Source of the DNA: Saccoglossus kowalevskii | Lineage: Eukaryota > Hemichordata > Enteropneusta > Harrimaniidae | Length of the DNA stretch: 64,000 nucleotides | Assembly (NCBI RefSeq): GCF_000003605.2 | Contig: NW_003153745.1 | Span: 185,957-249,956, forward strand | Reading direction: 5' to 3' | Shown: in pieces, positions 4,052 through 47,267 of the stretch | Layout of the letters: every line of letters begins with the position of its first letter | How positions within the stretch are numbered: position 1 is the stretch's first letter | Notes under the pieces: model-generated | Database searches by the model: none | What the model saw: only the letters and a program-made list of their open reading frames with translations | What the model was told of the DNA's origin: nothing | Translations under genes and position numbers: made by a program

Positions 4052-4094
4052 GCATGTACCATGGAACTATGGGTTTATAGTTCCATGCATGTAC
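4052..4094. repeat. Micro-palindrome insert (27 bp) with 8-bp flanking duplication
   Basis: GCATGTAC is repeated exactly at 4052-4059 and 4087-4094. Between them is a 27-bp palindrome, arms CATGGAACTAT and ATAGTTCCAT with a 6-nt centre GGGTTT. It has the same design as the elements at 25012-25040 and 25189-25225. Confidence 0.75.
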
Positions 4095-5562
4095 TAACTC
4101 TCCAATTCATCGTGACTCGTGGCACGGCAGCAGCAATGCATGCCAACTGGTCACGTGTTCGTGCAATTTTCAAACCTCTTCTCAGAGGCCGTTATTTCCC
4201 ACATGACATCTAGGCTCCAAACTTCATCAGTGTAATTTATTAAAGGAGGTTTTTCCAATTACGACTATTTTTGATCGCAGTCGGTAAAAGGACGGAGGGT
4301 GATTTAATGACCAGCACAAAAAGAATATGACAATCACAGCCAACGAGCTGCGTGACTGTTTGGGTTTTCTCGCCGATGATACGACATGACAGCAGCATGC
4401 CTGGGTTGCGCCGCCAGAAACCGGAAACTTAGCGTAAGTGCATCGTTTTAAAGACGGTCGTTAATGTCTCTCGTTTACGTGGAGTTCTACACCTCGGGTA
4501 AAAACAAACATGCCGTGTCATACGACTTCAGCTTGATATGGAGAGTAAACAAAGAACTGCATCAAGCCGACATCCACTGATATTGCATCCGGGCATTTTT
4601 CCCGTGCAACGTATATCTCCATTTAAACGCGGGAGGGGGAGGGGGTCACGACCTATGCGTATGTCGTAACCAGCAATCGGATATCTCGCCCCGATCACCG
4701 AACAGAAGTCGACTTGGGTTCAATCTCGCGCAAATACGACCTTCGTGATAGACAAGAAGGCGCCGTAATATACATATTTCCGTTATACTTGTCTCTCTGG
4801 AGATAGAAATTGATCCGCGTCGACTACCGGTACACGAACCAAGTTAAACTACATGTTGCCGAGTTCTGTTCATTTGGTTGGGTTGGTTTAGTTAATAATC
4901 TGGCGGTGAATGATCAGCGGTCGCCAGGCTGCTTTGAACTTCGTTCCCGGGAACCGTACTATATGTTTGTAAAACTTGCTCTGAATGGGAACCTTGCCTT
5001 GAAAAGGGTTTCATTCAAACTCTAACGCATGAAAGCGGTTAAATTCCACTGTAATGTCGTCGGCTGATCATTACAATAACATTTCATAGACTTTTGAGGT
5101 TTATAGATCACGAAATAGGGAGAAGGAGGGTCCACAGCACCGAATACGTTAGGTAAGAACGCGGTATTCAGTCAGTGTCCATTGGTCGTACCTGTTGACA
5201 ATATTATAAGTTCATTCGTAGCGCAGTTCAAACGTGTGAGGGCAAAGGGAAGTTGTTTTCAGGCGGAGGGAATGATACAACTAGGCGTGAATGTCCAGTT
5301 GTACTGCGTTGAATATCACATATTCGTTTAAGCCTGACACTCGTGTGGGGTCCTGTGCCTACGCTTCTCACATAAACAAGATACTTTATACAGAAGATCC
5401 TTTCATACAAGATGCTCTCCGTGATTAATTAGAAACGAAAATTCTTCTTGATATGTAATGATTTTGTTAAAAATACAAACGCGACACGAATATGTCGAAA
5501 CTGTTTACAATTTGTAGTTAAAATTTAGTCGAACACGTCGAACAAACGTTCTTACTATCTCA

Positions 5563-5570
5563 TGACGTCA
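5563..5570. promoter_or_regulatory. Perfect CRE (TGACGTCA)
   Basis: It lies inside the 12-bp palindrome CATGACGTCATG. Further perfect copies are at 13983-13990 and 14943-14950. Confidence 0.4.
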
Positions 5571-6036
5571 TGATGACATCACTGGCGGTTAGCTTCAACG
5601 TACAATGTCCGGGCCTTCATCGTCGTGCCGTAGACGTGTTTACATACCAACCATGGTAGCAGGAACTGCGTTCCTGTGCTCGTTTCCGGAGTTTTCGAGT
5701 GGGCAAGCACGGCGGAAATTTAAAATAAAACTGTTTTACAGTCAAAATGCGGAAAGAATCTTGGGTTGCCATGTAAAAATATCACTTACAGTATAAGGAG
5801 TCATGTTTGTAACCCGGGTAATTGTCACCATTAGTTACATGCAAGTTGTAAACATCTAGACATTGAAACAGATTATCCGTTTAACAGTCGTCACGGTCGA
5901 ATAAGAATTATTGCAACATGTATTTTTTTAGGTTTATAAACTGTTTTATGTATTATTATATCCTGAAATTCAAATTTTGTTAAAATCGGTCAACCTGATC
6001 GTAATATCTCGTTTAAAGCACCTGTAACGGCGCGGC

Positions 6037-6135
6037 GCGCGTTCAAATTTCGGGGGAAACGAAACTGTGTTTTAGACGCTTTGTGTAAGTTGCATGGGAC
6101 CAATATTTCGAACACGATACGGCGCAACGGCTGTG
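6037..6135 (+). repeat. Dispersed repeat family A, copy 1
   Basis: It starts with GCG..GTTCAAATTTCG and ends with a core at 6091-6135 (TGCATGGGACC, then TCGAACACGA). The last 28 bases match copy 2 at 23 of 28 positions. Confidence 0.5.
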
Positions 6136-6762
6136 TCGCTTCAACAAATTCTCCTGGTAATGTACTGTCACATCATTGTTATTTTGGTCAAAAGTTATCC
6201 GAACACGTCACAGTTGCTATAACCTCGATTTTGACAACGGGAAGATGTGCACCTGATGTAAAAATTACGTATGCAGAACCAACAGAGCATCGCCTAAGTT
6301 AACAAAGAGAATAAACTAACCCCTGAAAAAAACGTGATGTCTCCAGGGAAACTATGATCAATCACTTCACTCTCAATTCCGCGCCGTTCGTGGAAAATTG
6401 TTGGTAGGTTCCGTAGAAGAGTAGAGTGACATTGTGAAGTTGGCAACAATATTAAAGAGCCAAATAAACTGCACGAAAATCAAATACTTGAACGTGCCTG
6501 CCTTTCCTATAATATTGGGTTTCATTATCTGTTGAAGTTCAGAAATATGTTAATATTAATCAAGCGTTAAAACTGCCGATCTTAGGGGCATATTATTAAA
6601 ATGTAGGTAACTCCAGCATACCGGCATTCGAATAATAAGAAAGTCGCACACTCACTTAATTATTTGACAAAATTTACTGAGTAAATGTGGTATTGTGCGA
6701 TGAAGGAACATAATACTAGTAGACGATTTATATTTTTTTTTACCAAAACACAAAGAGTTTTT

Positions 6763-6778
6763 AAAAAAAAAAAAAAAA
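6763..6778. repeat. A16 homopolymer
   Basis: Sixteen consecutive A. Confidence 0.95.
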
Positions 6779-8298
6779 CGGATGTATATGTTTTGACTCC
6801 GAAATTGACGTAAGTGTTCTACCGCAACATATCCGGAAAACGAGGCAAACGAAAAGAACTAACTCCCCTGATAATTAAGACTGGTGTAGTTTTCCCAGTG
6901 ACATTTACCATCCATATTTTAGGCAATTCCATTCGCTGCGGGTAGCCTTTCAATGAATGGGCTAGATAGAAATTTATTAGGGCCATGGTTTCAACGTTAC
7001 AAAAGTTAACGACGTCACAGGAACGGTGAAATCGATTCGGGTTTCCGCCTTTATAACTGCCCATTTCGGTTCTCTTCGCGTTCATGCACAAGTAGTCGCT
7101 TTCAGAGAGCAACGTGTCCTTTAAACGAAGTTAGCGAGCTATAATTTATTTTGTTTTTAATAAGTGAATAATAAGGGCGGTGACAAATTCGACGGATTTG
7201 TTTGCTGTTGATGCATTGAATGGCCGACTCTTTATGCACTTCAGCGTAAAAAACAAATTGAGAAAAGCGCTCTTCGAATATAACTCTCGGCACTTCTACA
7301 TTCAAACCTACTCCACAGTCGCATCAGTCTAGTTCTTCATGGTGCACTCGACTCACACAGAAAAAAATACGACTCGCTTGTTATTGCTTTATTAAGCCAA
7401 GAGAGACAGGCCCTTGTTTTGCTGAGCACCGATCGCAATTTAGCATAATCAGGGCGATTTCCCCCGAAGTTAATTGAAAAATTGTCCTCAATTGTCAGAA
7501 ATCATGGATAATGATGAAAAAACGGTTAGATGTTTGCGCGAAAGTGTATCGATCGTCAATCTAGTACATCTTTCATTTGTTCGAAGGCACTATTTATGAT
7601 TAATAAAATCACTTTTTGGTTAATAATGAAACCCAATTTAATAGCGCGGCGGGACGACGTATCCGTGAATGAACACATTTTTTGCACGTGTACGGTGAAT
7701 AGTTACAGAAACACGGCGAGCTTGCTTGCTAACAATACCGATAACTTTTTAAGTATTAGAGACTAACAAAGTATCAACGCTAGAACATGTTTAATTTTCA
7801 GTGGATTATCCCAACCCCGCGCACATCACCCCACCCAGCAGTAATAACTAAAACTTATAAACAAATTTGACATTTTTGTTATATTTCAGCTTCAAAATGT
7901 AGTTACATGTTGTTGTCGGTGAAATATTAATTACAATCTAAAGAATATGTTATTTTTGATTTTTTTCTTTTTTTTCAAATCAACTGCCGATCGAACAAGC
8001 AATAAATAAATACAAATGGCAATTTGATTACCAGAATTGAATTCACATAATATTTTCACAATTCTCATTTAATGCGCAACTCCGCAGACATCGACCCTTG
8101 TTTCTGACGCTCCAGGGTAAACCGAAAACATTTTTATTTGCCTATGCACCGATCTTTTATATAATTTATTGCACATAACGCTGTGTTTGAACAAAACTGA
8201 ATACCCAATATATCGCCCTACAAGAGTTGAAGAGATTTGCTATAATTATCAGAAAGCTTTAAGCTAACAAAATTATATGTTTTTTGCCATATGGGCCA

Positions 8299-8320
8299 TT
8301 TTTTTTTTTTTTTTTTTTTT
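8299..8320. repeat. T22 homopolymer
   Basis: Twenty-two consecutive T after ATATGGGCCA. It could be the poly(A) tail of an old minus-strand retro-insertion, but no body is recognisable. Confidence 0.95.
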
Positions 8321-11300
8321 GCTTTGATTCATGTCTATTAACGCATTATTTGACTATGCCCTCTTTCGGCGTTATTAAGCGGTTTGCGAGTAGCTTTTCA
8401 TCAAACACTTCTTCGTCATGTATATCGTTTATGTCACTCCTTCAACCGTCAAAGCTGGCATATGTTTTAAGTTTGAATATGAAAAATGCGTTTGTTATTT
8501 TTATTTTATTTTAGAGTTGATTCACACGGTTCTCGCGGGGATGGAAAAGTAGGTCGATTTACATCACGGAAACAAGAACTAGCGATCACTTAGTTACGCC
8601 GAGATGCTCCGACTTGCATACTCAGGCTACATTCACGGTACTTATATTTTAATTCAGTTCGTTTTTAATTCCAAGTATCTTCACAGCGTCTGAAACAAAT
8701 CAGACCCCCTCCCTCCCCTCAACGCATACCGTAGATATAGATTTATTTATAAATTGTGGATGTTTTGGATAATTAATCGACAGAATTTGGAAAGTTTCGT
8801 CGTCTCGCCTGGAGTTACATTAACACTCCTCGGAACTGTTGAAAAGTTACACATCTGATTTTGGTTGTAAACAGCCAAAGTGACATGGATATGTGTATTA
8901 GTTGTTTTCCCTTTGTTTTTTTTCAAGAATAACTTCAACTACATGATTGTTGCGCGAGACATGGTGACATTACAAGTGTTTATGTAAAAACACAATGAGC
9001 ATTTTTCTGTCTGAAATTGAAACAATTCGTGATGCGCAAGTTATCATTTTATTAAAATTGTTGCCTAGTTATACAAATAATTGCATATCTGGAAGCAATA
9101 TCATAGAGCCCCAAAGTGAGTGTCCTTATATTGGTTTCATGAATGGCTGAACCAAATTGGTCCGGGTTTACGTCATGTTTTGTGGGACTAAGGTGTGGCG
9201 TAGTACGCATGCGCACAGTCCCATCCCTGTGAATCAAACGTCTGGAGTATATTCGGCGGCAACATGAGCAAGGGTAATTACTCATTTCAGCTTAAACGGG
9301 ACGAGCGTAAAGGAGACAAAAACAAACATATTCATCCCATCTCAGGTTATCTTGTGTATCATATTGCTCTTTTTGAATAGTATGAGTGATCACAAGCCTC
9401 ACTGAGTCCTACATATTAAGAATCACAATCCGAGAGTTAGTTATAGTTTACTTGTCCTCTTCTATATAGAAGATATGATTTAATTTGAGTCTGTGTATTA
9501 ATAATATCTCCACATGGTACTAGATTAAATGGCCCACATGACACGACGCGATTTTGCTTTTATTTTGCGTGGAAGATACTATTTAGAAAAATAAAGACCG
9601 CTGTTTTTATAGCTGTTTTTATTTCCGTGCATGTGTTTTCGTGTTGTCTTATAATGAAAGTACATATTCACACCGTGAATAAACTGTTGGTGTTAAATTG
9701 TTTCCTGCGCGGAACAATCCACATGACGTTGCCGCGGGCACCGATAAATGTCACGTGTCATTTGCCGTTAAATAATTAAAAACAAAATCGCCGTCACGGT
9801 CTTGTGCTAAAATTACATTAAATTTAATCAAAGGGTAAAATAATAAGGTTTAAGTATCAGTTCAAATTTCTGAAAAGAAAGGCCAACATTTCAGAGAATT
9901 TGAATTATTTGTTTTATATGGATAGTTCATCTATTGATCGCATGTGCATCGCACGAAAAAAGACCCTGTTGACTGATTCAGACTCAATCAGATGGGTTTT
10001 TTTCTTTTGATTTTCTAAATAGTGATCGATGTTAGTGTGGCCACTAGACGATAATCGTTTATTATCCATGTTTAAAGCGTCCATCGAAGTGTATTTCCCG
10101 CAACATCGATTTCAACGCAACTGTCGTGTTCAAACAAGTCCGATTTACACTAAGAGCACCTCTGCCCCTATCCGACCCGAAAGAAAAAAAAACGCGGAAT
10201 ACGAAAAGGCCTCAGGTTAAGCTGAAGACAACGAAGGTGTGTGCTTTTAACGATGAGTCTTGTCGAACTGTCATTGACAGTATGTTTGTTTTTGCTATAA
10301 AAGAAAAGTACAACAAGAAAAGTATTCTTTGCCGCTTTGAGCTGTTTTCGTGAGAGGAGCGATGATCTTAGAGAGCTTTCCCGCACGGGTGATTGATTGT
10401 TGATACAAGTGGTGAGCGGCCGTTTTTCTACTTTTAGTAAATCCAGTATCAACACATTGAGGTGCGCTCGTGAGTTGTTTTAAGAGACAGAAATGTAATT
10501 AATCAGGCCCTATGTTCCGACGTTGATGACCAATTAGTCCTCTCTTTTCTCTATTCCTTCTCCACATACTCACTCAAAATCAAATCATTTGGTGCGCTCA
10601 TGCTCTTGGATACACTTTACAGATAACTGAATGATGAGGGTCTGGGCTAGTTCTTTTTTTTTTCTTAAAAGGCTCTTTGCTTAAAAGTAGGTATCAAAAG
10701 TAGAAAACCGTCTTCACTTAATAGCATTAGCAGTAATTCACAATCATTTCGTCATGTCTCGTTAAACAGGTCCGATCCATTGTATAGGCGGTGCTATTAA
10801 CAAAACGGAACGATCCCCGTATCCGTTTTTTTTTTCTAAAGATTGTTTTATTTCTTTTGCCGTTTAAGGCTGTGGAGTTTTCATTAAAAGGGATTGGGGC
10901 AACATCATTCAAATTATTTACATGAAAGCGGAAGAGATGGGAAAGAACGAGGGCACTGTCTGTCAGATAATTTTATCTGTTATTACTGTAATTAACAATA
11001 TAGAAAGCTACCCCCCACTGAGATGACAATTTGTTTTGCTCGGGCCTCCCAGTGACACAGGCGAATTTAACCAATACCAGTCACTGAGTAACAACTCCCG
11101 CGTGCGACCTATTGTTACAGGGAATTTTTTAATAAATGCTACGGCTTTATGAAGAATTTGTATGTGCATTAAGCATTTCGTTTGAGCGGCCAAAGGTCAG
11201 AGAGAGCGCATTAACTGCGATCAGTCGCCGGGTGGTAAAAGCTTTAGCTAATAGCAAAAAAGTAACGTATACGCGAGACAGCGTAATATCGCTAACGGCG

Positions 11301-12849
11301 TGTTCGCCGATCACTGATGTTTTATATTATGTTCTCATTGTCTTGTTCCCAATAAAGCGGCATAATTCCGTAAAAGTTGACAAAAAATGTTTACTCAAGC
11401 ACGATGTGATGAGTTCGTACAATAAAACGCCCTTCTTCTGTCTTCTCTCCTGCGCCTCTTTCTCTTTCGCTTCATCAAACATAACACCTTGTCACAGTAT
11501 AGTTAAATCAATTTGAATGGGTAATGCAGCGATGAACGTTGGACTGTCCGTGATGAAACAATTGCGTCGCACGCGTACAAATTTGCCGTATCTCGTCATG
11601 ATTTTGTGTCAGATTTCAAAAAGATAATTCAACGCCGATCTGCGTATCTAATAAAGTGTTACCGTTATACGTATATGCACATGAAACCCTATTAGTGAAC
11701 ATCAACGATGGGGTTACTATTAATCAATACAAAGGAAACGTTTTACATGGCAAAATACATACAATGCCTCGGCGAGATTGTTTGTCAAAATGGATACATT
11801 GACAATTCAGTTAACTCTATCCGCTGGCTGTTTGAGTTAGCAACCATTTTTCTCTACTGACAGGAAATATTCCATCCGAGGCGTCTACCCGTGTAGCGCC
11901 AATCGGCGCGTCTCGACTGATCCATTAATAGCGATATCAATCAGCTCTAGACGCCGTCGATCGCTCTGCAATAAGCAATCTTTCCGTCACGTGTCATTTT
12001 ACACATTCTCGTATTATATGTGTGTATGTTTTCTTTTCTCTTAAGATACTTCTGGTGATGCTTTCGAGAGAAGCTTTTTTTTTTACTTTAAATCAGTAAT
12101 AAATACACTTGGTCAAATGAGTACAGCCCGGAGGAAGTGTTGTATCGCTGAAATACGTAATGAAAGCGTGTTTACGACGTCTGTCATATTGACAGTTTAT
12201 TATAATTCATATTTTGAACAGACTTTGAATGCAATACGAAATCAAGTTAATACAATTTAGGGGAGTAATAGAGTACATTTCATTTAAGATCGCTGTTAAT
12301 TATGAACGAATGGCTAACGTCATTGTCCTTCATTAGACAAAGATTTTAACACGTTGTGTACATTATTTAGTGCATTTTAGAATCACAACAAGTACTGTTC
12401 TCGAGTGATAATTACTGGCATTCAAATTCAAGTTTACTCTGACTGAACATCGTACATTAAATTGAGTAATTTAAAAATCTGCATCCTGGTAATGGGGGGA
12501 AAAAGCAATTGTATCAATAATATGTATAATGCGTTAATTAATTGATGTTGCTGTCGTTTATTTTGGAAACAATTACATGCTCAAGCGGGTCACGTAAACT
12601 TTTAAGCAACATAATTCAAGAAAGCCTAATGTAACGCTAAATTAGGTTCAAAGTTGTGAAACCGGAAGTTGTTTAAGTACGATTCTCCGTCTAGAATGCG
12701 TATCTCTAAGAACCTTTGGTGATCTTCAGTGTGTGTCCACAGTATTTCGGTCGGCACGTGATTGTCAGTAGCGCACTGATATATTCACATATTTGTGGAC
12801 ACCACCTGTTGGCATGCCCGTTACACAACCCGAACAATATATCCTAAAC

Positions 12850-12894
12850 GTCGCATGGATCCCACGTCGAACACGACGCGAAGCAACGACTGTG
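12850..12894 (+). repeat. Dispersed repeat family A, copy 2 (3' core only)
   Basis: Contains GTCGCATGGATCC, then TCGAACACGACGCGAAGCAA and ACTGTG. It shares GAACACGACGCGA exactly with copy 4 at 59401-59413. Confidence 0.5.
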
Positions 12895-14265
12895 GCGTTT
12901 TGAAATACATTCAAAAATTCGACGCATACACTGAGAATACAAGATTCCTCGGGAGGTCGAAAAAACCACTGACTGTATTGTATGTATAATGTGGGGGGCT
13001 ACAATTTCAAATTCCTGCATTTGGGAGATTTGTGAACAAAATATAATAAAAAAAATAGTATTATATGGCCACTTTCCGTTCTGGGTTACAATCAATGTCG
13101 CGTTACATATGTCCTTTCATTATTTACTTCCCTACCCAGCTAAACTCAATAAAGAAGATTATCTTCATCGCGTCCGTAAGGTGTTACGTAGTGAGATTTC
13201 GTGTGTTTTTTTTCCCATCAAAACAATGTGCTGCAATGGTTTAAAGGGTCGTGGTCGTCGCGCCGCGTCATGCTGAATAAGGATCCCATAGCGACGTATT
13301 CAAACACGCGCTGCCCGATAATTATATTCCTTCAATATATTTTCTATATTTTTTAATCTCACTTTCTTTTCACGCCCGCTCGATAGAAATGTGCTCCTTT
13401 TTACTTTCAAGTCTGCCTCATTCAAATATAACACTAAAGTAACGGCTAACGTCTTATCATTGAGAAGTCGACTAAATACTGTCAACACAGAATGATGAGA
13501 CATCGCGTTAACAGAGACAGAGAGTTAGACAGATAATCGATACGGAACACAGAGAGATTTCCCTTTTTTCAGAGAAACCTTCAGTCCCCGGTTTTAATTA
13601 AAATCGTACTGATTTTATATAGTTCTTTCTTGTATCTGTATGATAATACCGTCTCATCGACAATTCGTGTACTATATCACAACATCTTATTTAGATCGAT
13701 TTATGGCGGAGCTGAACTGAAGGAAGGGGCCTAACGTTTAGAAAAAAAATCGCTTATAATATCTAACTGTTATTGCGATTTTTATTGTACGTATCTCATC
13801 AAATTATTCAACTTCGGGAATAATAAAAGGTTTTTTGTTTATTCTAACAACTGTACCTGGACGCGCCTGTTGTCATGGTAATAATAGTCAGTCGTAGGTG
13901 ATCATGGTGCGACATTCCTCCTCGTAGTTAAGCTAACTAATAAAATGGTATTATTAGAATTATTCGGCAGAAGTAACAAAGGTGACGTCACAAAAAAAAA
14001 CGCAAAAGCCTAATACCAGTTTAATTGTGTGTTGTATAGGAAGACACTATTAAATTTGTCAATTCATTTCGAAAACATTATAGAATCATCAAAATAAAAA
14101 AATAAAAAGGAGGTAAATAACTAAGTCAACACTATTATTTCAAGTTCAGTCACTTCGCACCCCCAAGCACACTATACACAAAAATGCACATTGCACGAAA
14201 TCGCATGACAAATGTGTAATAGACAAAGGCGATTTAAGCGAGAAAAAAGATTAAGTGAAGCCAGG

Positions 14266-14320
14266 GACCTCCCTCGGTTAGGTAGGAAGGACCACAATAA
14301 AGAAGAAAATTGAACGCTAC
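14266..14320 (+). repeat. Dispersed repeat family B, copy 1
   Basis: Aligns without gaps to 15305-15359: 42 of 55 bases identical, and 10 of 13 differences are transitions. The core reads CGGTTAGGTAGGAAGGACCA. No coding frame is shared. Confidence 0.55.
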
Positions 14321-15304
14321 AATGTTGGTAAATACAATGTGCAGGAAAATAAAGTACTAGCAAAAACATACATTGTATGATATTTTCCTTTGCTTCAAGG
14401 GAGGGAGGACCTGTTGCGCGTATTCCGTTAGAACAAGTATGAAAAGTAAGCGACAATTTATTTCGACGTCAGAATTTTTTAACTGGGCGCAATTTTTGGC
14501 GAGGCTGTTATTTAATTCAGGTGACTAGCTACATATTAACTTTTTACGAAGTGACCACCCTCCCTACCTCTCACACACTAATATATGTAAAAAAAAACGA
14601 TTATCATCTCCTCCTAACTACGCACGTTCTCTTCTGTCACCCCTCTTCCTACACTCCAACTAACATGTAAGTACGTGACCAACCACACTTTTCAGGACAG
14701 TACTGATAATATGATTAGAGTAGTTAGAAAATGGATAAATTGCAACAAGTATAAGTTGCCGTGTCTGTAAATCACTGGGTATACTGTAATCGTGCGTGTT
14801 TCTATCAGTCTTCGCAAGCTTGATGGGTGATTTGTAAGATTGCGCACTAGTTTGTGTCAAGTTCATTACTTATTTTTTGCTGTCTTTGCCGTCTTTTGGT
14901 GTCAAAACGCGTCGCCCTGTATCTGACTCTTTCATACATATGTGACGTCACATCGTAACTCTGCGCGTTTTATAACAACCAATTTGTGGTCTGACTTTTT
15001 GCGAAACAAGCGATCCCAAACCCTGCTGGCATAGGTTGCCACCATTAATTTTATTATTTTTACGACACCACTTTTTTTTTAGTGTAGAGCACTCTTACAA
15101 ACAAACGCGCATCATATATGTATATATGTATGTATGTACAGAGGTGGAATTACAACTATATCGACCAGCGCCCCAAGGGACTTTTCCGACTTTTTTTTGA
15201 AAATCCCGCTGTTCTGTTGTGCTCATCACAATACGAGTATGTAATAGCCAGCGGTTATTGGCGGGCATAAACGAAATGAAACACGCGCATCACGTATCCA
15301 ACAT

Positions 15305-15359
15305 GATCTCTCCCGGCTAGGCAGGAAAGACCAGTTTAAAGGAGGAAATTAAACGTTAC
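15305..15359 (+). repeat. Dispersed repeat family B, copy 2
   Basis: The partner of 14266-14320, with core CGGCTAGGCAGGAAAGACCA. A perfect TGACGTCA lies about 280-360 bp upstream of each copy (13983 and 14943), so an old tandem duplication of about 1 kb is possible. Confidence 0.55.
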
Positions 15360-15663
15360 CAAATTTATACTGAAACAATGTTCAATGGAAGTTGAAAAGA
15401 CGCGAAAGAGATGTGTGATGCTTTTTCTTAAATTCGTAGAAAAGACCCTATTATTTTGTTAAATCTGTAACGACTGTGTGTTTTTACTCACGCAGTTACT
15501 ATAGTCCGTGTCTACATTGATGTCTTCCGCAACAACTAGATTATAATTGATTGCATGTAATATGATGTCATTATGGTGTTTTACTTTCTACAAAACGCAT
15601 CGGGCGAAAATGGTATGGTTACACCCTTACCAATTTTATCAATCCCCGATCTTTATACAGTGC

Positions 15664-15703
15664 GCGTTCGGAATTTCGTGTAAACAGATAAGGTATGTCA
15701 CCT
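15664..15703 (+). repeat. Dispersed repeat family A, copy 3 (5' part)
   Basis: Matches copy 4 through GCGTTCG, AATTT, GTGTAAACA and TATGTCAC.TG, in the same order with small indels. The 3' core is not evident here. Confidence 0.45.
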
Positions 15704-15950
15704 GCGTTGTAAACGTTACAGGAGACGCAGTACGACGACCATCGCCCTTTAACTTGAAAAATATCATATCACGTCATGCCAGGTCAAGCTCTTAAGACAT
15801 ATAGTCACGTACCTGTGCGTCAGGCCAGGTTTATCCGGCCGTGTCCGGCTCGCCACGCGCGCCGAGTAACGCCATGATTTTCGTACATCATACGCAACGT
15901 TACATTATCTCCCTCATCATGTATACGTATTTGTCACGTACGCGAGTTGC

Positions 15951-16015
15951 ACGTCCGTCCTTTCAGCCCACCAGCCTGCCCGTCCGTCTGTCCGTTCATC
16001 TGTCCGTCCGTCTGC
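15951..16015. repeat. Degenerate (CCGT/CTGT)n tetranucleotide tract
   Basis: Repeating CCGT, CTGT and CTGC units run across about 65 bp, interrupted by TTTCAGCCCACCAG. A related short CTGT tract lies at 16308-16328. Confidence 0.85.
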
Positions 16016-16984
16016 CCATACGCTCGTGGCCGTGGCTTCGTCCTAGGTAAATCTTTGAGTAAAAAATTCGGAAATATCTCATTCCATTCAGCTTGAGTGT
16101 GTATCCAAATTTAGTATTTTGTTTTTGAGTCGGGCCAGCGCTTCCACAGCGCTTCCGTTCAAATTTTCAAGTCTTTATTACCGAGTCTTGGTGTTCATTG
16201 GACGTTCAACTCCATTAAATGTTGAAGTCTAGCTGGTAAGTTGATAACGTAATTTTCGAAGTCGGTCCAAGTATTGTCAGGCCTGGCAGAGAGCCTTTCA
16301 GTCTACCGGCTGTCTGTATGTCTGTACGTATTAACTTTTCTGTGATTCCTTTTGCCTGGACACTCTACTTAGATGGAAATTATTGACAAGTAAATGTCCC
16401 ATCGTTGCCATGATAACAGATCGTCATTCAGTCTACCTGCGTGTTTGAGAAAGTTGGTCATAAGTCATGTGACATTGTTCATTGTGAATAATCCTGAAGC
16501 TATAATTCCATTGCAACAGGAAACAGAATTCTGCTGTGTGTACTGTATTTTGGGGAAATTTTCCAAATATTATTTTAAAAAGTTGTATTCTTAGAGCAGT
16601 TCAATAGAAAGCATCGTTAAAGCAAAATCGCATTTTATGACAAATCAAATTTTTCGAATAATTCAGAAGTACCTTATCAGTCACGATACACGGTAGTTTC
16701 ATTCTTTGTGATATGACGCCATATATCCACCACACGATCAAATGGTAAATCGTTCTAATACTGACAAAATAGCCTCTATTCGAAAAAAATATAATCAAAG
16801 TTTTCTTCAAAAGTACGCTGGTGATCTTAAACACGTGTTAAGTACTTATATTAACCGGGAGTGCATTTTATCGTAAAATCGACTAACTCTGGGTATTTTC
16901 ATTTATGAGTAGGCTTCAACTTCAAACATCTATCACGTTACACAAGTGAGGTTTCTTCAGTCATATCACGGCTGGCTTGTAACG

Positions 16985-17215
16985 TTCACGCCATTCCCCG
17001 TCAAGACACAACGTCACGCAACCCACGTCATGCCAGACGTTTTTGATCACTCCACAGCATGTTCTGGAAATGTATTCAGACATGGCTTGACACATATTGT
17101 TCTACAGACGCTTTCTGCCACGCCACACTACCTAACGCCGCCCCACGTCACTCCACGCCACTCCACGTCACGCCACGTCATTTCATGTCATGCCATGTCA
17201 TGTCTAGTCGCGTAG
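16985..17215. repeat. Degenerate CGTCA/CCACG-rich tract, block 1
   Basis: CGTCA, CACGC and CATGTCATG words recur about every 5-10 bp, densest at 17140-17210. CGTCA is the CRE/ATF half-site. Confidence 0.75.
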
Positions 17216-17302
17216 TGAAATACTCTTCAGATATATTTGTTCAAGTCACACTGTGATTTAAAAACTATTCTGTCATGTCTCATCACGCGCTTTTAGTCAG
17301 AC

Positions 17303-17560
17303 CCCGTCATAGAACGTCATAGAACGTTCTTCCGTGTGTTTTGTTAACTCGAATTGCTCCTCGAACATCTTTGACCACGTCACGTCACATTGAGCTCTGT
17401 AGATGAGTATTCTGCTGCGTCATTATTGGCCACACGTCTTGTTCTTCATAAGCCATCGACGACGTCACGTCATGTGCTCCGGGATTCTTTACCGAGTAGC
17501 GCAATGTTCTTTAAACGTCTGCTATGTACGTCACGTCACGCCACGCCGCGTCACGCACTT
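17303..17560. repeat. Degenerate CGTCA-rich tract, block 2
   Basis: Includes a tandem CGTCATAGAA duplication near 17307-17326 and compact CACGTCACGTCA, GACGTCACGTCA and CGTCACGTCACGCCACG groups. It continues block 1 after about 90 bp of unlike sequence. Confidence 0.7.
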
Positions 17561-18852
17561 CTGAAGTTTTCCATCACTTCGAGTACAACAGGTTCCTTCG
17601 GTATGAAAGTATATTTGAAATATAACTTCCCTGCTCCTCACTTCACCTCTAGCTACTCGTGGTTTAACAGTCAAGAAATCCCGAAATACTTTCTCGACGT
17701 AGTAGTTGACGAAGGAAATACGATTTCTAGTTTTACGGACGATCGGCATAGCATTGTGATTATTTTTTTCTTTGTATAAAAACTGTGGAATTGAATACAT
17801 AATAAAATATTACAATCGGCAAGAAACAATACCTTATCGAAATGGTCAAGATAATCTAGATACCCCAGTCAGTGACGAATTCAGCATGAATTTCCTTTAT
17901 GTGTTCATGAAAACGTTACAGCTCAGACAGTTTTTTTTTCTCTCTCTCTCATAGTGGTGGGTGGGAGCTCAGTGACAATATACAATGCATACAATCAACA
18001 ACGCTGCATGCCACTTCACAGGGGAACTGTTCGTTTCGCCGTGGCAGATGCTAAACTCCAGAAAAGCAAACAGTGGCAGCATGTTCTGAACTAGTACGCG
18101 TGAACAATCACAAAAAAAAAACGGTGGAGAGAATAGTAAAAAAAAGAGTAAATCAAAAAAGCATTTAGTTAGTCGCCAACTCGACATAACCCCGTGATTT
18201 ATTCCCATCAACAACTCCGATCTGATCACGTCCAATGTTGACCAAACGTTTGTCGCCATACGTCACAGTGACAGCTAAAAGTTGACTCAAGACAGCGTAC
18301 CTTCTGCTGTGCATTTGCGGCCTAACAAGGCGATAATATCACCTGTAACGATCCCCAGACGGCTTAATTTCGTGATAGATTGCCGCCAATAAAAGCCTGC
18401 AACAGCATGAAATTCGAAACTGGCTTCAAAGAAGGCGGAAAAAAACGCAAAGGAGGCACTTTTAAGCGATCTCCGACTACATGCTGACGCGAATTACGGC
18501 GTGTGTAAATAGAGTTGTCTCAATATCGCAGAGTACTGTACTAAATCGATAGCAAAACCCATAGATAGAGCAAGGCAAAGAGGCATGATTAGAGCAAGCA
18601 TATGGTACAATTTACTTTGCTTGCAAAGAACAGACTGTACAAGGAGCGATAACACGAAGCGGAAATGCAACGATTTATTACTTTTCCCAACATAATTCCA
18701 CCAAGTGTCAATATTTTCCAAGTTGGGGGTATCGGAGAGTCGCTAGAGTGGCGGAGGATATAAGAGGTATTATGGGATAGCCGAGTACAATACTCTTAGT
18801 TGGACACTCGCGAGAAGTTAAGACCCACTCCAAACAAAACCCTCCACCACAG

Positions 18853-18950
18853 TATACAACAATCGTGGCGCTGAGCAGCCACCAAGAGTCAGACACTCTC
18901 CGTCAATTCTCCACACGAAGAGAGCCTCTCGTGTTCGTTCCCCACAGGTA
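18853..18950 (+). promoter_or_regulatory. Possible 5' non-coding exon with strong splice donor
   Basis: TATACA at 18853 is followed by an initiator-like TCAGACA near 18889 and a consensus donor CACAG|GTAAGAG at 18948. The intervening 57 bp lack an ATG. If real, it could be a distal first exon for Nkx2-2, whose start codon has an acceptor just upstream. This is not demonstrable from sequence. Confidence 0.2.
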
Positions 18951-20250
18951 AGAGCTACTTCTTTAATGCTTTACTCCCCTCTTTACATTTTATTATCATT
19001 TTTTTCGAGAACATCTTCAATTGTTTTGTTTTTTTTATATCATCTATGCGACACGCGTCATAATTTTCAGATTCTGTTTAAAATAGACTTTCGAGAGTTT
19101 TTTTTTTTATTTTTATTAAAATCAAATGTGATTAAGTGTGGTTATAGGGTGAAAATAAGTCGGGCGAGCTGTGCTCCCCGTTTTCATTATTTTCTCAAAA
19201 TTTAAGAAAGTTGTGTTCTTTTATCCGGTGACTCAATCTTTGAGGAATATCGACGTTCTTTTTTCTTATGGTGGACCATTCCTTCGCTGGTAGTTCAGTG
19301 AATGTGTCCGAAAACCGAATCAGCAGTTGGCGATGTACGCCCATGATACTTAGCTTAACGTCATCGAAATCATGAATTTGTTTTCAAGACACTTGCGATT
19401 CATTCAACGTGTGCCTACGCATAGCTGGGATTGGTGGAATCTGTACCATACCCGTTACCTGTGTAATCGGATGGCTAGGTACATTTCGCCGATGGATTGC
19501 TCCATTCAATTGACCACTACACGGATCGGACGAAAGTTGGAACTCGTCGCGAGTGCTATGCACTAGATTGAATGGTGCCCATGCAGTCATGGTGATTCAG
19601 ATAGCACACCCCCGAAGAGCCGATCGAGATAACCCACGCGACAGGTGGACGAAAATTATTTCCAAAAGGCCGACGAGGTTAACTATGCCGTGCTACAGGT
19701 CACGAGACCCATATTTATAAGTTCTTTATCGATAGCCATAAAGCACAATCAGGGGACTTTGCATTCCAATCGTGGGGTAATTAATTGTATGGGGTGTCTA
19801 TTTGGAGGGTCACTAAAAAAACGGAAGACGCGAAGCGTATACATACTGGCAACGGTGTTTCTATCTTCCACGACGGTTGTCTGGCAAACTCCGATAGATT
19901 CGCATTTGACAGTGTGGTGTTTGCCGCTACGGGTCGATGATACAAGTTCATTGACTTAAAAAGAAATATTTCGAGAACAAAGCTCTGTTGTCAAAGTGAC
20001 TCATTGCCTATTAACTGTTAGGCACCGTATCATATTGTAGACACATAATTCTACCAGCACTGGCATGTCCCGTGTTCCTGGCCACTCACCTTGTCAGCTG
20101 ATGGCTTTACAATACGACTATAAACCATCTTTAAAATCGATTTATTTTAATCATTGGACTTAGTTTTGGGCGATAAATAAAATACTTGCGAGACTACAGC
20201 TGCTCTTTGCTTCTATCAGATTAGAATGTTTGATAATAACTTATTAAACA

Positions 20251-20274
20251 CGGCGGCGGCGGCGGCGGCGGCGG
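20251..20274. repeat. (CGG)8 trinucleotide repeat
   Basis: Eight perfect CGG units in otherwise AT-rich sequence. They lie in no convincing ORF. Confidence 0.97.
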
Positions 20275-23200
20275 TGGTGACTCAAAAAAATTAACTCAGA
20301 AATGCTCAAGTGGCAAGATTTGATTTTAGCAATAAAACATATGGAAATTTTGAATTTTTATCGAAAAATTTAAAAAAATGTTCTCGCCTTTTACTGAAAA
20401 CGAAAAACCATGTCTGTGATCGTGTGGTTTATCCGCGTAACGTCGAGGTGAGCCGAAGCAACTTTGCCCTTTGTCTACTGGTGGGATTTCTACAAAAAAA
20501 CCAGGTGTAAGTGTTTCGGAGTTTATATTCCGTGTGTTTATTTCTCGGCTGTACTCAAAACTTATCACACACAAAAAAATGTTTAGTCTGATCAGTAGAT
20601 CAACAACGTCCCTCCTTGTTTTCTTCGCCAAGTGTAGATACCCCGACTTATTATCTAGACAAATTTGAGCACATGTTATTCGATGAAACGTATACACTGT
20701 AACGGACCACCTGTTGATTGCTACTCCTCAAATAAATGATGTTTACTTCTTAATTCGTAAATCTCCGTAAAGTCTTTCTTTTATCTTCGATTTTTAGATT
20801 GCGATAAGTATAAAATAATATACTAGTGTACTGAAATTGTGACAGGATTATATGCTGGCGTTTTTGGTGGTTGCCGCGCAGTGTTCACTGCGATTACCAA
20901 TACCGACAATAATACGCATTTTTTTTATCGTGATTTTATCTCAACAGCGACAACGATACCCTCAAAAAAATGAGCATGTATTCTTAGGTTTTCTAACTTA
21001 TCTCAGAGAGCATACTTGATATGACACGATTTCCATAGTTGGTCGTCAGATGTAAATCATCTTTTTGAAAGAGCGCGATGGATCCGCGATAATAGTTCTA
21101 CGTAGCCTGGCCGTCTAAATGTACTAAACGCGTCCTTATCTTGTTTTGGTGGAGGTATTATTGAAGTGGCTCGCTAAGTAGTGTCCGCCAATACATGTAC
21201 TGTATTGTAGCTGGGTAGATCCGGTGATACTATAATAATCGGGGGGACGCGAACAATTTGTTTGATTATTTTATTATCGCTGTTGGATGTTACAATTATT
21301 AATAAACAGCGATAAATGCAAAATCCCAAAACATCCGTTCCATTTTGTATCCGTAATTGTAATCAGGAAATGGCAGTATCCATTAAACCAATTAAATATA
21401 GCCGCGGATCGGTGCATGTATGCAATTTCCCAACACTGTCCGTCGACGTACATTCACAATTTGTTCTTGAACGCGAGTCCGTTTCATATAAAATCTCTGT
21501 TGGTGCTTACGTTATCAACGCTCGCTAGAGAAACGAACATAAATCCAGAATGCGAACATTATTTTTTTTTCATTTAAGAAAAGACTGAATTTAAATCATT
21601 GAACTGGTCGCGTTAGTTAGATGGTTTAGGGTTTTTATACATTTCAGAAGAGGAATTTAAAATTTTGTGTTTATAGTTTCTTTCGATCTATTCCGCTTCA
21701 ATCAAGTTCATCGATCAATTTAGAATAAAAATCTTCAGACCACATATAAACAAATACGTAAATTACCAACTACAGCGACGACAGTGTTCGGCTCTAGATA
21801 GCAGTCTGGTCATTTTTGTTATACATGTATATAACTTGGTTATATAGCTGAATCATTTCCCACCAAATAAGTAACCGATTACTTAAATAGAACGTATTGT
21901 TTAACTTTTAATTACTTGTCTTAGTTGACTGAAGATTGTGTCAACACTTTGTTTTAAACCAATCATTGAAAATAGTGATAGCGAAAATGTTCCTTGTAAT
22001 TTAGTAACTGCTATATCGATAGTTGAGGTCCGTTGTTAATTTCACGACAGCGTCTGACGCCGAAAACGTCACCACGCATGATGTAATCAATCTTAATATT
22101 TGCATAATTTCATGTTTATTGTATTATAACTATAAATAACAGTTGTTTTTAATTAAATAATTTGTCAGCATGTTTCATGTCTTCGTGAGTTATTTTTGGC
22201 GGGAACATCTTAATAAATAAAGTTACGGATACTCGGCATCGTTATTTATATGTTGTTTAATTTAGTGCTTGTGGCTCAGTGGCGTGAAGATCGCAATAAT
22301 CTTTTGAATTTTATTTATTATCTGTTTGATTTGTTGCGATATTAAATTTTCAAAATAATAAGTTGTATAATGGTCATGCGACTAATTGCGTTGAGACGCG
22401 GTGTATTTTTTCCTCTCTTTGCTTTTAATATGGAGGGGTCAGAGGGCCATGTAACAACCGGGCGCTTTATTGAAATCGACATGGGGTTAATTTTTGTAAA
22501 TTTAATTCATCCGAATTTTAGGAAATCAGTCAAACGCCATTAGACACGCCTGAATACTGCATCATTGTCGAAATTACATGTAAATCTGAAATAAGCACGA
22601 CAAGCGAACCGGCGCCCTGTTGCGCGAAGCTATTAAACGGACGGTGACTGTGACAGCACGGTAATGGGTAGGCCCGTCAGAATGTAAGAAAACACTGTGC
22701 CCGATCACACAACATTAAATTAAAAATTGTCAATAACAAATCTTGAATGCAGCTAAGAAAATTGAATGCTGCTCGTCGGCCTACGTAAAATAACAAAGCT
22801 TTTTTCTGCCAATTTGTCTATTTTCGTTCATTGAACTTTTTTTTCGGTTTTGGTGGGCATTATTGTCTCTATCAGTTACCGATACTGCAATAATTACTTC
22901 CCGATTTTGTTATTGATACAGTACTGTATATGTGTTCGTCTTCAGAATGTACACTTTCAGTTCTTAAGTACCCATGTAGCGATTCTATCAATGTTATTTT
23001 ATCGTCATTTTCTAAAAAAATCCCCCTCCCCGCCCTTATCGCAATCTGCCGCTATTGATTGGTGGAAGTGCCCAGGCCACGTGAGCACGCGATCAGAGAG
23101 CGACACACAGTATGAGATGGCGCTGCCACTGTTGATTTGATATATAAGATGTTTTTCATCTTATATGCGCCCGCACGCCTGTCACTGTGGAAACGACTGT

Positions 23201-23349
23201 GACGGATAGGTCTCATAAAGTAACGCAAGCTAACGAAACACCGCATTGTTTGACTCGTCTATATACTTTACCGTCACCGGGAGGTCTCCTCTGGAGTTGT
23301 ACCACGCTTCCGTCGCTTGACTTTGAACACTGTTTCAGGTAGGTCACAG

Positions 23350-23367
23350 ACACACACACACACACAC
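23350..23367. repeat. (AC)9 microsatellite
   Basis: A perfect dinucleotide run. Confidence 0.95.
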
Positions 23368-24108
23368 GTTGCAACTTTGACAGCCCCCAGTTCGTACCTC
23401 TCTCATTGCCGCTGTTCACCCGGGAACGGACGTGACGTTGTTATTATTACCTGTATCAAGTCCCGTTACCACCTGACTGGGTTTTTTTAAGCGAAACAAA
23501 ATGCACTCCACCACTTCAAGCGCACTTCATAGTTCCTTTATCCGACGACCCATGCGTCTGGCGTTCCAGTCATTGGTTCGAATGCTCTCAGCAAAACAAC
23601 CGACACTTGCAAGATATTTTTTTACAAAACAAAAAAAAACGAGAGGCACAGTCCAAACTCGACCTTCTCAGGTCCATGGTGTGCCATCGGTGGAAGAATA
23701 TCGGAGATTAACAAATTCCCGGGTCCGCGAAGGGTTGCAATCTCTGCTCAAAAGAAGCCATCCGGAACAAGTTGTGATTTGTGCCGTAGATTGCCGTGGA
23801 TAGTTTCTAAAGAGAGGCGAACAAATCTTCAAGCTCGTTGTGGATAATTATTTTTCCGTTTTAAAAAGCGATGGATTACCACGTTCAAAGCATCGTAAAT
23901 ATCCCAACCATCTGTCCCCAGTATTTCCCTAGAAACATAAACTACGGCATATCTGAACTTCCAAGTAACCGTGCCCTGCCACTGCAACTGATCAACGGTC
24001 CAAAAGTCAATATTTATTGGTAGTTGTAATGTAGCTCTTCTGTCGTCTTTTTTTTTTCAACATGGGCGAAGTCGTGGAACTGTAAGAGGGGCGAGGACAT
24101 TTCGATCT

Positions 24109-24160
24109 TTTGTTGTTATATTTGTTGTTGTTGTCGTTGTTTTGTTTTTGTTTGTTTGTA
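24109..24160. repeat. (TTG)n/(TTTG)n microsatellite
   Basis: TTG units pass into TTTTG and TTTG units over about 50 bp. Confidence 0.9.
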
Positions 24161-25011
24161 CCACACGAGTATACCGTGCAAAGGGCGGGTGAGGGTAAAT
24201 GGCTGGGAAGGCGAATGTTTACCGATCGAAGGATTTTATTGTAAATCGAGGTCAAGATATGAGTAAATGTCACAAATTTTAATGTGTATTTGAAACGGGT
24301 AACAACAGCGTGGTTTCAAAGGTCAACATCAGAAGTAAGTAGTGGTATGAAAATTGCAGTTATCTGTCAGATTATCGGCGAGACACGGTCAAGTATTATT
24401 CAGTTGTTGCTGGTTTTTCCGCTTGAGAACAAAAATAATATTTCGCCAAATGCGAAATTTGTCGTTTCCTAGCCGGTTAAATTGCCTCAAGTCGCGTGTG
24501 CAACCAAAGACACGCTGTCGTCGCGATTTCTCCAACAGTTGTGTAGCTTCCCAGATAACGCGGTTGTTTGGCTTCCGGTAAACGATGTTAATATACTAGT
24601 ACCTAGTTTTGTTGACACCTTTTTCGAGTGTGGACACGCACTGTACAACGGGTCGATCGTCACTACTACACACTCAAGTAAGTGGTTACGATTTTTATAC
24701 GAAACGCAAAGCGTGTCCGATTTCCCCTTTCGTGCCAGATTGACACATTCTGGGCTTTGAGGTGTTGCTAGTAGCACCATTGCTGAAATATTAATTCAAA
24801 TGATATCGGTGGCCATTTTGTTCAACTAATCACACACCATAACCTACATTCAAACGTTTGGGATATGTCATAACAACACTCAGGGAAACATGCGTTTCAA
24901 ATCTGGGTATATAGTACTTTCCCGGGTGTTATTAATTAAAATGCCTAAGTTTGATGATTTTAAACAATCACAATTGCCAAATATAAACTGAATATTTGTT
25001 GTCCTGTGTCT

Positions 25012-25040
25012 GTGCCAATCATGGAGCTCCATGTGCCAAT
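25012..25040. repeat. Micro-palindrome insert (13 bp) with 8-bp flanking duplication
   Basis: GTGCCAAT is repeated exactly at 25012-25019 and 25033-25040, flanking CATGGAGCTCCAT (25020-25032). With the following G the insert is the perfect palindrome CATGGAGCTCCATG. This is the shortest of the three elements. Confidence 0.75.
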
Positions 25041-25188
25041 GAACGTCCACACGAATCGTATTGCTAACCACCAGCGCATCACAGTACTAACCAAAGTTAA
25101 CCAAACCAAACCTCAGAATATTGTGTTATCCGAATAGGGCGCACTTGAAAGTGTTGCAAATTTATAATTGTTACTTTTGTCCCAGATT

Positions 25189-25225
25189 GACTATACCATG
25201 GAGGTTTTTACCTCCATGACTATAC
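25189..25225. repeat. Micro-palindrome insert (21 bp) with 8-bp flanking duplication
   Basis: GACTATAC is repeated exactly at 25189-25196 and 25218-25225, around a 21-bp hairpin: arm CATGGAGGT, loop TTTT, arm ACCTCCAT. It lies only about 150 bp from the 25012 element. Confidence 0.75.
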
Positions 25226-34159: not shown

Positions 34160-34201
34160 TTTGTGTGTTCTTGTTACAGAAAATACTCGACCAACGTACT
34201 C
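34160..34201 (+). promoter_or_regulatory. Candidate 3' splice site just upstream of the Nkx2-2 start codon
   Basis: A T-rich stretch ends in TTCTTGTTACAG at 34168-34179, 22 bp before the first ATG. This looks like an acceptor for a 5' non-coding exon. An in-frame TAA at 34157 closes the upstream frame, so no further N-terminal coding sequence lies directly 5'. If the site is used, the first exon is upstream and unproven. If not, the 5' UTR is contiguous. Confidence 0.4.
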
Positions 34202-47128: not shown

Positions 47129-47267
47129 TATAATAATATGAGGTTATTACGAGGATACGGTAAAATATGCACGAAGACAGTACAGCGGGAGTGCGCGTCG
47201 GTCGATGCGACGATGTACTGTCTGAGTGCATACTTTGAGGTATCCTCGTAATAACCTTATTGTTATA
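47129..47267. repeat. Long imperfect inverted repeat (hairpin, about 139 nt)
   Basis: A perfect 17-bp arm pair (47142-47158 with 47240-47256, GGTTATTACGAGGATAC) continues inward through paired blocks ATATGCAC/GTGCATA-type and AGACAGTACA/TGTACTGTCT, with short internal loops. It closes on an inner CGTCG/CGACG stem at 47196-47212. The outermost AT-rich bases pair partly. It could be a palindromic MITE or a transcribed hairpin RNA. Confidence 0.7.

What the first reader, a model, noticed from the sequence alone, without database searches (positions are those of the whole stretch)
4052..25225. Three micro-palindromes CATGGA...TCCAT, each flanked by a perfect 8-bp duplication
At 4052-4094, 25012-25040 and 25189-25225 the structure is the same: an 8-bp direct repeat (GCATGTAC, GTGCCAAT, GACTATAC), then a 27-, 13- or 21-bp palindrome starting CATGGA and ending TCCAT, then the same 8 bp again. 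The duplicated sequences are unrelated but each starts with G and has A at position 7. Perfect 8-bp duplications around three inserts with shared ends are far beyond chance and look like target-site duplications (8 bp is typical of hAT elements). Inserts of 13-27 bp are too small to be ordinary MITEs. They could be paired inverted-repeat ends left after internal deletion, or a distinct palindromic insertion process. I do not know a named family of this form.
Basis: partly seen in the sequence, partly recalled or inferred. Interest (0 to 1): 0.78.

Follow-up and report, generated by a model that had tools for sequence, protein, structure and literature searches.

The report
Scars left by departed P-like transposons
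The three tiny palindromes are most likely repair scars left when jumping genes of a P-element-like kind cut themselves out of an animal's DNA, and this genome carries so many such scars that one can read from them where the enzyme cuts and how the cell mends the break.

Summary
The three palindromes (14, 22, 28 bp) are flanked by exact direct repeats, 7 bp rather than 8; the leading G belongs to the palindrome. The window lies in a 572-Mb animal genome that could be searched: CATGGA(N0-30)TCCATG occurs 2322 times against 353 for the reversed control. Inner arms fall into families. For two I found intact parents: elements of about 740 and 940 bp with 30- and 33-nt terminal inverted repeats and 7-bp target duplications. 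The palindromes keep about 18 nt or less of each end (family A: 92 places with a 0-20 nt gap between 11-nt arms, 1 with a 21-51 nt gap). They are joined bluntly, at 1-2 nt microhomologies, or through short inserts. Paralogous empty sites carry one copy of the 7-mer. Published Drosophila P-element excision junctions have this architecture (17-nt tails, 8 bp); the 7-bp GTNNNAC target resembles Galileo and 1360. So these are excision footprints of P-superfamily-like transposons. P transposase domains exist in the genome, but none was linked to these ends. The mechanism is known; the genome-scale archive and the 18-nt offset are the new part.

The parts
4053..4059 (.). left copy of 7-bp target-site duplication, CATGTAC
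   Evidence: sequence; exact repeat of 4088-4094
4060..4087 (.). footprint 1, 28 bp: 11 nt (CATGGAACTAT) from one end of a family A element joined to 17 nt (GGGTTTATAGTTCCATG) from the other end
   Evidence: parent element terminal repeat CATGGAACTATAAACCCCAGGAAGAACAAC from 18 copies
4088..4094 (.). right copy of 7-bp target-site duplication, CATGTAC
25013..25019 (.). left copy of 7-bp target-site duplication, TGCCAAT
25020..25033 (.). footprint 2, 14 bp CATGGAGCTCCATG: 7+7 nt blunt if from family C (CATGGAGGT..), or 9+9 nt sharing 4 nt if from the family with ends CATGGAGCTAAA..; family not decidable
   Evidence: families seen; decomposition by eye
25034..25040 (.). right copy of 7-bp target-site duplication, TGCCAAT
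25190..25196 (.). left copy of 7-bp target-site duplication, ACTATAC
25197..25218 (.). footprint 3, 22 bp: 8-9 nt (CATGGAGG/T) joined to 14 nt (TTTTTACCTCCATG) of family C ends, 1-nt microhomology
   Evidence: decomposition by eye; parent family C terminal repeat CATGGAGGTAAAAAGAGAAGGAGTCACAGCCAA from 5 copies, a few mismatches and one diverged end
25219..25225 (.). right copy of 7-bp target-site duplication, ACTATAC

Best explanation
Each micro-palindrome is the excision footprint of a P-superfamily-like cut-and-paste transposon. Step 1: an element (family A about 740 bp, family C about 940 bp, and others) inserted and duplicated 7 bp of target. Step 2: a transposase cut it out. It cut one strand at the element boundary and the other about 18 nt inside, so each chromosome end kept the 7-mer plus a tail of about 18 nt of terminal repeat. 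Step 3: the two tails, which carry the same sequence in opposite orientation, were trimmed and joined by end joining (blunt, 1-2 nt microhomology, or with short inserts, some of them templated). This left target 7-mer, truncated end, reverse-complement truncated end, target 7-mer, which reads as a palindrome. Shown here: 7-bp duplication, empty paralogous sites, parent elements, the 18-nt ceiling, the join types, and the presence of P transposase domains in the genome. Inferred: the enzyme's identity, the strand polarity of the stagger, and the repair pathway.
For: Genome excess 2322 vs 353; family A 92 vs 0 control. 35 of 40 fetched family A sites have a perfect 7-bp repeat and 38 of 40 at most one mismatch; 0.19% and 0.77% of 1560 mispaired flanks have 0 and 1 mismatches. 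Parent family A: 18 copies examined, 30-nt terminal repeats (the first 18 nt were the search key), perfect 7-bp duplication in 16 of 18. Ceiling: 51 family A footprints retain at most 18 nt on their longer side, except 4 that match a 19th base, 2 of these explained by overlap with the other arm, although the repeat goes on to nt 30; gap 0-20 gives 92 places, gap 21-51 gives 1. Family C: perfect 7-bp duplication in 5 of 5 parent copies, and 4 of 10 other family C places fetched read exactly CATGGAGGTAAAAAGAGA (18 nt) before the joint. Joins among 51 family A footprints: 26 blunt, 10 with 1-2 nt microhomology, 15 with 1-11 nt inserts, two visibly templated. Paralogous empty sites with one 7-mer. 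Palindromic target motif T..[GTNNNAC]..A, compare 1360 GTTNAAC with 7 bp and Galileo GTANTAC with 7 bp. Drosophila P excision junctions with the same layout. P transposase domain PF21787: 13 matches in this genome.
Against: No P transposase gene was found between CATGGA-type ends: the 13 loci of 3.2-3.4 kb gave no such pair, only one weak CA..TG candidate in L176 (10 of 14 end bases, 7-bp repeat TTAACTC), and 8.4 kb around the best one gave nothing. 19 of 45 CATGGA palindromes examined have no 7-bp repeat within one mismatch and no 8-bp repeat, more than the 15% background suggested by 353/2322; they include chance matches and possibly decayed scars. 2 of 18 parent copies have unrelated flanks, and in 3 of 10 further family C places no scar was recognised. 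One family A case (C2109, 54 bp) and one of two cases of another element (C4170, 41 bp) keep more than 18 nt, so internal deletion also happens. The offset is 18 nt rather than the 17 nt of Drosophila P. The 5-10 nt microhomology joins common in the Drosophila data (29% in spn-A flies) were not seen, but my family A pattern needs 11 nt from each end and would miss most of them.
Confidence: 0.9

Rival explanations
1. Internal deletion: the elements are still in place but lost their middle during replication or gap repair, leaving both ends; no transposase cut at a fixed point is involved.
For: Two cases retain more than 18 nt of an end (C2109; C4170), and shorter 446- and 544-bp family A copies exist.
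Against: Random deletion should leave a broad spread of end lengths through the 30-nt repeat and beyond. Observed: 92 places with gap 0-20, 1 with gap 21-51, and a ceiling at 18 nt in family A (51 footprints) and the same 18 nt in 4 of 10 family C places, whose sequence there is different.
Confidence: 0.05
2. hAT excision footprints, as suggested by the reader's 8-bp duplication.
For: hAT elements such as hobo have 8-bp duplications with a GT....AC target core (GTNCGNAC in PMC3276498, passages), and the end bases CA..TG are also common in hAT (recalled).
Against: Duplication is 7 bp in 35 of 40 family A sites and in 21 of 23 parent elements. hAT excision hairpins the flanking DNA and does not leave 18 nt of element (recalled). 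No search with a hAT family was run.
Confidence: 0.03
3. The palindromes are themselves tiny mobile units that insert as palindromes.
For: Some exact sequences recur at unrelated 7-mers: CATGGAAGGTACTAACGTTAGTACCTTCCATG twice among 45 sites, CATGGAACTATATAGTTCCATG six times among the 50 listed family A places.
Against: The recurrent ones are joins expected from microhomology within one end sequence; the inner parts vary among footprints of one family, and long parent elements exist with the same ends. No sequence of 14-36 bp is known to suffice for transposition (recalled).
Confidence: 0.02
4. Chance palindromes or a local duplication artefact.
For: A minority of CATGGA palindromes genome-wide are chance (353 in the reversed control against 2322).
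Against: Shuffles and mispaired flanks.
Confidence: 0.005

Closest known systems
Drosophila P-element excision junctions (P{wa} repair products, PMC2895639; passages, section 9 with Tables 2 and 3; those tables come from spn-A mus308 double mutants)
   Same: Target duplication, up to 17 nt of terminal repeat from each end joined head to head, then target duplication; ends start CATG; blunt, short-microhomology and templated-insert joins.
   Different: There 8-bp duplication and 17-nt tails, made in laboratory crosses; here 7-bp duplication, about 18 nt, an estimated one to two thousand natural copies of the CATGGA class, terminal sequences otherwise unrelated.
Galileo (P superfamily, Drosophila; PMC2775673 and PMC4168063, passages)
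   Same: 7-bp target duplication, occasionally 8; GTANTAC-type palindromic target.
   Different: Galileo has long internally repetitive terminal repeats; here 30-33 nt. I made no search aimed at Galileo footprints in print.
1360/Hoppel (P superfamily; PMC3276498, passages; the name Hoppel is recalled)
   Same: 7-bp target duplication with core GTTNAAC.
   Different: Terminal sequences were not compared here.
hAT elements (hobo; PMC3276498, passages)
   Same: GT....AC target core.
   Different: 8-bp duplication; no retention of 18 nt of the element (recalled).

Membership tests
P superfamily of DNA transposons | target-site duplication of 7-8 bp with palindromic GT..AC core | tested here: met
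   7 bp, T..[GTNNNAC]..A in 38 footprint sites; similar core in 21 parent-element duplications (G1 13/21, T2 14/21, A6 12/21, C7 9/21)
P superfamily of DNA transposons | terminal inverted repeats beginning CA and ending TG | tested here: met
   CATGG was the search key, so its presence alone proves nothing; but the 7-bp duplication abuts CATG exactly at both ends in 21 of 23 parent copies, and in a scan that did not ask for any end, 7 of 14 non-CATGG palindromes with a 7-bp repeat begin CA, about 1 expected
P superfamily of DNA transposons | staggered cut about 17 nt inside the element, leaving long terminal stubs at the donor site | tested here: met
   ceiling at 18 nt in family A and 18-nt stubs in 4 of 10 family C places; inferred from products only, strand polarity not testable, and 18 rather than 17
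P superfamily of DNA transposons | encoded or partnered P transposase (THAP, GTP-binding and RNase-H-like domains) | tested here: inconclusive
   PF21787 matched 13 times in the genome, but not between CATGGA-type ends; the one family A copy examined has no frame over 90 aa
hAT superfamily | 8-bp target-site duplication | tested here: not met
   7 bp in 35 of 40 family A sites; one 8-bp case, L132
hAT superfamily | hAT transposase linked to the ends | not tested
   no search with a hAT family was run
MITE (non-autonomous inverted-repeat element) as parent | short non-coding element, terminal inverted repeats, many near-identical copies with target duplications | tested here: met
   family A about 740 bp, 22 pairs of ends among the first 100 of 138 matches; among 8 whole copies up to 99.3% identity, longest open frame 90 aa in the one copy examined

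The most novel reading that the evidence does not exclude
This animal genome holds a natural archive of germline double-strand-break repair events that all start from the same chemically defined ends (P-type excision with an 18-nt stagger, one more than in Drosophila). The CATGGA class alone gives roughly 1300 to 2000 two-armed scars (58% of 2322 with a recognisable duplication, or 2322 minus 353), and other CA..TG families probably bring the total to several thousand. Excision followed by end joining outnumbers intact copies: in exact-match counts for family A, 92 two-armed scars against about 30 intact copies (22 pairs in 100 of 138 matches, extrapolated).
Probability: 0.65. Interest if true: 0.6.

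Novelty: new variant of a known kind. Interest (0 to 1): 0.5.

Why it matters
Excision scars are usually studied in crosses of one marked element (as in PMC2895639). Here the scars alone reveal target duplication length, target motif, cleavage offset and end-joining spectrum of transposons whose enzyme has not been identified, in an animal genome held here without a name. The same reading (fixed ceiling of retained end sequence plus target duplication) could be applied to other genomes to infer cleavage offsets of uncharacterised transposases and to compare germline break repair between lineages. It also warns that short palindromes flanked by direct repeats need not be elements of their own.

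Tried and rejected
hAT reading: rejected on the 7-bp duplication and retained ends. Eight-bp frame: rejected because the target motif is symmetrical about 7 bp. Longer elements inside the window: a scan for 7-9 bp repeats with 12-bp ends up to 4 kb gave two weak candidates with ends other than CA..TG, and a scan for CA..TG ends gave one weak candidate at 60128-61698 with 11 of 16 end bases. Viral-contig scan for relatives: used only as a chance control. Footprints of a 402-bp element found at L141:7216-7617 (24-nt perfect ends, 7-bp duplication): only 2 candidate places genome-wide, one with a filler and one with more than 18 nt of an end, so this family says little and its second case runs against the ceiling. 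Linking a P transposase to the ends: failed. A similarity I suspected between 4020-4055 and the hairpin at 47138-47260 rests on a shared 10-mer and was dropped as likely chance, without a test. Rfam and tRNA scans of the window: nothing. Pfam on ten window frames: homeodomain only, plus two matches below the curated cut-off in the same frame. None of the titles and abstract starts listed describes a genome-wide set of P-type excision footprints; I opened five papers in part (PMC7776569, PMC2775673, PMC4168063, PMC2895639, PMC3276498) and none in full, so this is no proof of absence. A genome-wide count of CATGGA(N31-61)TCCATG and of CATGGAGGTAA(N0-22)TTACCTCCATG did not complete.
Full report
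What is in the window. Written without the shared G they are 7-mer, perfect-ended palindrome, 7-mer: CATGTAC with a 28-bp palindrome at 4060-4087, TGCCAAT with a 14-bp palindrome at 25020-25033, ACTATAC with a 22-bp palindrome at 25197-25218. In 60 dinucleotide shuffles such structures averaged 0.18 and never exceeded 1, against 3 seen. A fourth weak case at 26426-26451 (TACGAAA, TGACAACTGTCA, TACGAAA) has other ends; with arms of 5 nt or more the shuffles average 0.47, so it is at chance level.

Whole genome. The window is part of an unnamed 572-Mb assembly in 4830 contigs. CATGGA(N0-30)TCCATG occurs 2322 times against 353 for the reversed pattern. At about 4 per Mb, the window (3 in 64 kb) is locally rich. 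Of the 50 distinct places listed I examined 45 with flanks (five, C52:183824 and four on C53, were left out). 17 have a perfect 7-bp repeat, one an 8-bp repeat (L132), 8 a 7-bp repeat with one mismatch, and 19 none of these. The inner arms are not random: they repeat a few sequences (CATGGAACTATAAACCCC, CATGGAAGGTACTAACGG, CATGGAGGTAAAA.., CATGGAGCTAAAA.., CATGGACGTAC.., CATGGATGTAC..). A scan of the fetched stretches and the window (283 kb) for any palindrome with arms of 6 nt or more and at most one mismatch in the 7-mer gave 42: 28 begin CATGG (the stretches were chosen for CATGGA), and of the other 14, 7 begin CA (CAAAGACACTAG, CATAGACCTT, CACAGTCCCTCTATCAC and others) where about 1 is expected.

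Family A. CATGGAACTAT(N0-20)ATAGTTCCATG: 92 places, control 0. Of the 50 listed, 6 were already among the 45 above (4 perfect 7-bp repeats, one 8-bp, one with one mismatch), 40 were fetched now, 4 were not fetched. Of the 40, 35 have a perfect 7-bp repeat, 3 one mismatch, 2 more. Among 1560 mispaired left and right flanks 0.19% had no mismatch and 0.77% one. The target motif over the 38 sites is T at -3, then G T N N N A C, then A at +3 (T 32/38, G 19, T 26, A 25, C 21, A 27), symmetrical about the centre of the 7-mer. Intact parents: CATGGAACTATAAACCCC occurs 72 times forward and 66 reverse, control 0. Among the first 100 matches listed, 22 pairs face each other 446-757 bp apart, most of them about 740. 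I fetched 8 whole and the ends of 10 more. All 36 ends, whose first 18 nt were the search key, go on to CATGGAACTATAAACCCCAGGAAGAACAAC, 30 nt, with one mismatch in total; 16 of 18 copies have a perfect 7-bp duplication and 2 have unrelated flanks. The 8 whole copies are up to 99.3% identical, and the one examined has no frame above 90 aa, so they look like recent, non-autonomous elements.

The ceiling. The terminal repeat continues for 30 nt, but the 51 family A footprints (50 listed plus window footprint 1) keep at most 18 nt on the longer side, apart from four that match one further A, two of which overlap the other arm. Searching for longer two-armed products, CATGGAACTAT(N21-51)ATAGTTCCATG, gives 1 place against 92; that one (54 bp) keeps about 37 nt of one end. 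The search form did not impose this: a one-sided product could have reached nt 31. Family C, the likely source of window footprint 3, agrees with different letters. CATGGAGGTAAAAA occurs 215 + 211 times, control 3. Five intact pairs 732-942 bp long (three of them 938-942) have perfect 7-bp duplications (5 of 5) and 33-nt ends CATGGAGGTAAAAAGAGAAGGAGTCACAGCCAA, with a few mismatches and one diverged end. Ten other places were picked by hand from the listing: four stop at exactly CATGGAGGTAAAAAGAGA (18 nt) before the joint (L258, L262, L266, L267; two of them with one mismatch in the 7-mer), one two-armed scar stops earlier (L259), two (L260, L265) read as scars that lost nearly all of one arm (my reading), and in three (L261, L263, L264) no scar was recognised.

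The joins. With the end sequence known, family A footprints decompose into left stub plus right stub: 26 blunt, 10 with 1-2 nt shared, 15 with inserts of 1-11 nt, out of 51. Two inserts clearly copy nearby end sequence (C540 TAGTTCCATG, C1374 ATGTAGTTCCA). The pattern demands 11 nt from each end, so products with longer deletions or long microhomologies are not counted. Window footprint 1 is 11 nt plus 17 nt. Window footprint 3 is 9 plus 14 nt sharing 1. Window footprint 2 is 7 plus 7 nt of family C, or 9 plus 9 sharing 4 of another family (2 and 3 worked out by eye).

Empty sites. L134:2983-3057 carries two nested scars: a 34-bp palindrome CACAGTCCCTCTATCAC/GTGATAGAGGGACTGTG in ACCTGAC, then a family A scar whose 7-mer CCTGACC includes the first base of the earlier scar. 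The paralogous stretch in L133 (98.8% and 98.6% identical on the two sides) reads straight through with one ACCTGAC. L133:6287 has an empty relative in L125 (87-91% identical), L133:3976 one in L135. L126 and L146 are copies of one repeat with scars at two neighbouring positions, each empty in the other. These are insertions into a single 7-mer, as required.

Mechanism. In Drosophila, P transposase cuts at the element's 3' end on one strand and 17 nt inside on the other (PMC7776569, passages), and the donor site is repaired to duplication, up to 17 nt CATGATGAAATAACATA, its reverse complement, duplication, with blunt, short-microhomology and templated-insert joins (PMC2895639, passages and section 9). 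The scars here have the same layout with 7 bp and 18 nt. Among P relatives, 1360 has 7-bp duplications with core GTTNAAC (PMC3276498, passages) and Galileo 7-bp (rarely 8) GTANTAC (PMC2775673 and PMC4168063, passages). Hobo, a hAT element, has 8 bp. Shown: insertion with 7-bp duplication, parent elements, the ceiling, join types. Inferred: the transposase family, the strand polarity, Pol theta-like or classical end joining.

Limits. P transposase domain PF21787 has 13 matches in the genome and none in 14 control genomes; two of the 13 lie next to each other on one contig and may be one gene. I could not place one between CATGGA ends (8.4 kb around the best one), and the best open frame matches no other Pfam family at E up to 0.01. 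P-superfamily membership therefore rests on DNA signatures. A genome-wide length spectrum over all families was not obtained because the search machine did not answer. Two products keep more than 18 nt, so rare internal deletions coexist. The number of scars of all families together is not measured; the CATGGA class alone is about 2000 above control, and one-armed scars are not counted.

Novelty. Excision footprints and P-type cutting are known. New, as far as the searches named in Tried and rejected show, are the size of this natural archive, the two parent families, and the inferred 18-nt offset.

Noticed in passing
window 34160-35670: Homeobox gene, apparently in two exons, NK2 type by recall (homeodomain E 5.5e-19); shows that the host is an animal.
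   Followed up: partly
window 47138-47260: Hairpin with 50-nt arms, 84% complementary, 23-nt loop, containing GAGGTTATTACGAGGATAC; possibly a small inverted-repeat element.
   Followed up: no
window 26426-26451: TACGAAA, TGACAACTGTCA, TACGAAA: palindrome flanked by a 7-bp repeat but with other ends; not above chance.
   Followed up: partly
L134:2983-3057: Two nested excision scars of two different families, the second using a target that includes the first base of the earlier scar.
   Followed up: yes
L133:6287, L134:6964, L134:3024, L142:4632, L142:8093, L142:8975: Palindromic scars with 7-bp repeats (at most one mismatch) whose ends begin CA but not CATGG (CAAAGA, CATAGA, CACAGT, CACGGT): further families of the same kind, possibly numerous.
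   Followed up: partly
L141:7216-7617: Intact 402-bp element with 24-nt perfect ends CAGAGGTACATTACTTGGGGTTTG and 7-bp duplication ATACTAC; only 2 candidate scars of it in the genome.
   Followed up: partly
L165-L177: Thirteen P-transposase RNase H domain matches, several with stop codons; the protein of L165 finds the others at 24-80% identity; none linked to inverted-repeat ends.
   Followed up: partly
L123:1501-1521: Scar with one end from family A and the other from family C (CATGGAACTAT..TTACCTCCATG) within one perfect 7-bp duplication CTTATAC; perhaps a hybrid element or ends of two elements joined.
   Followed up: no
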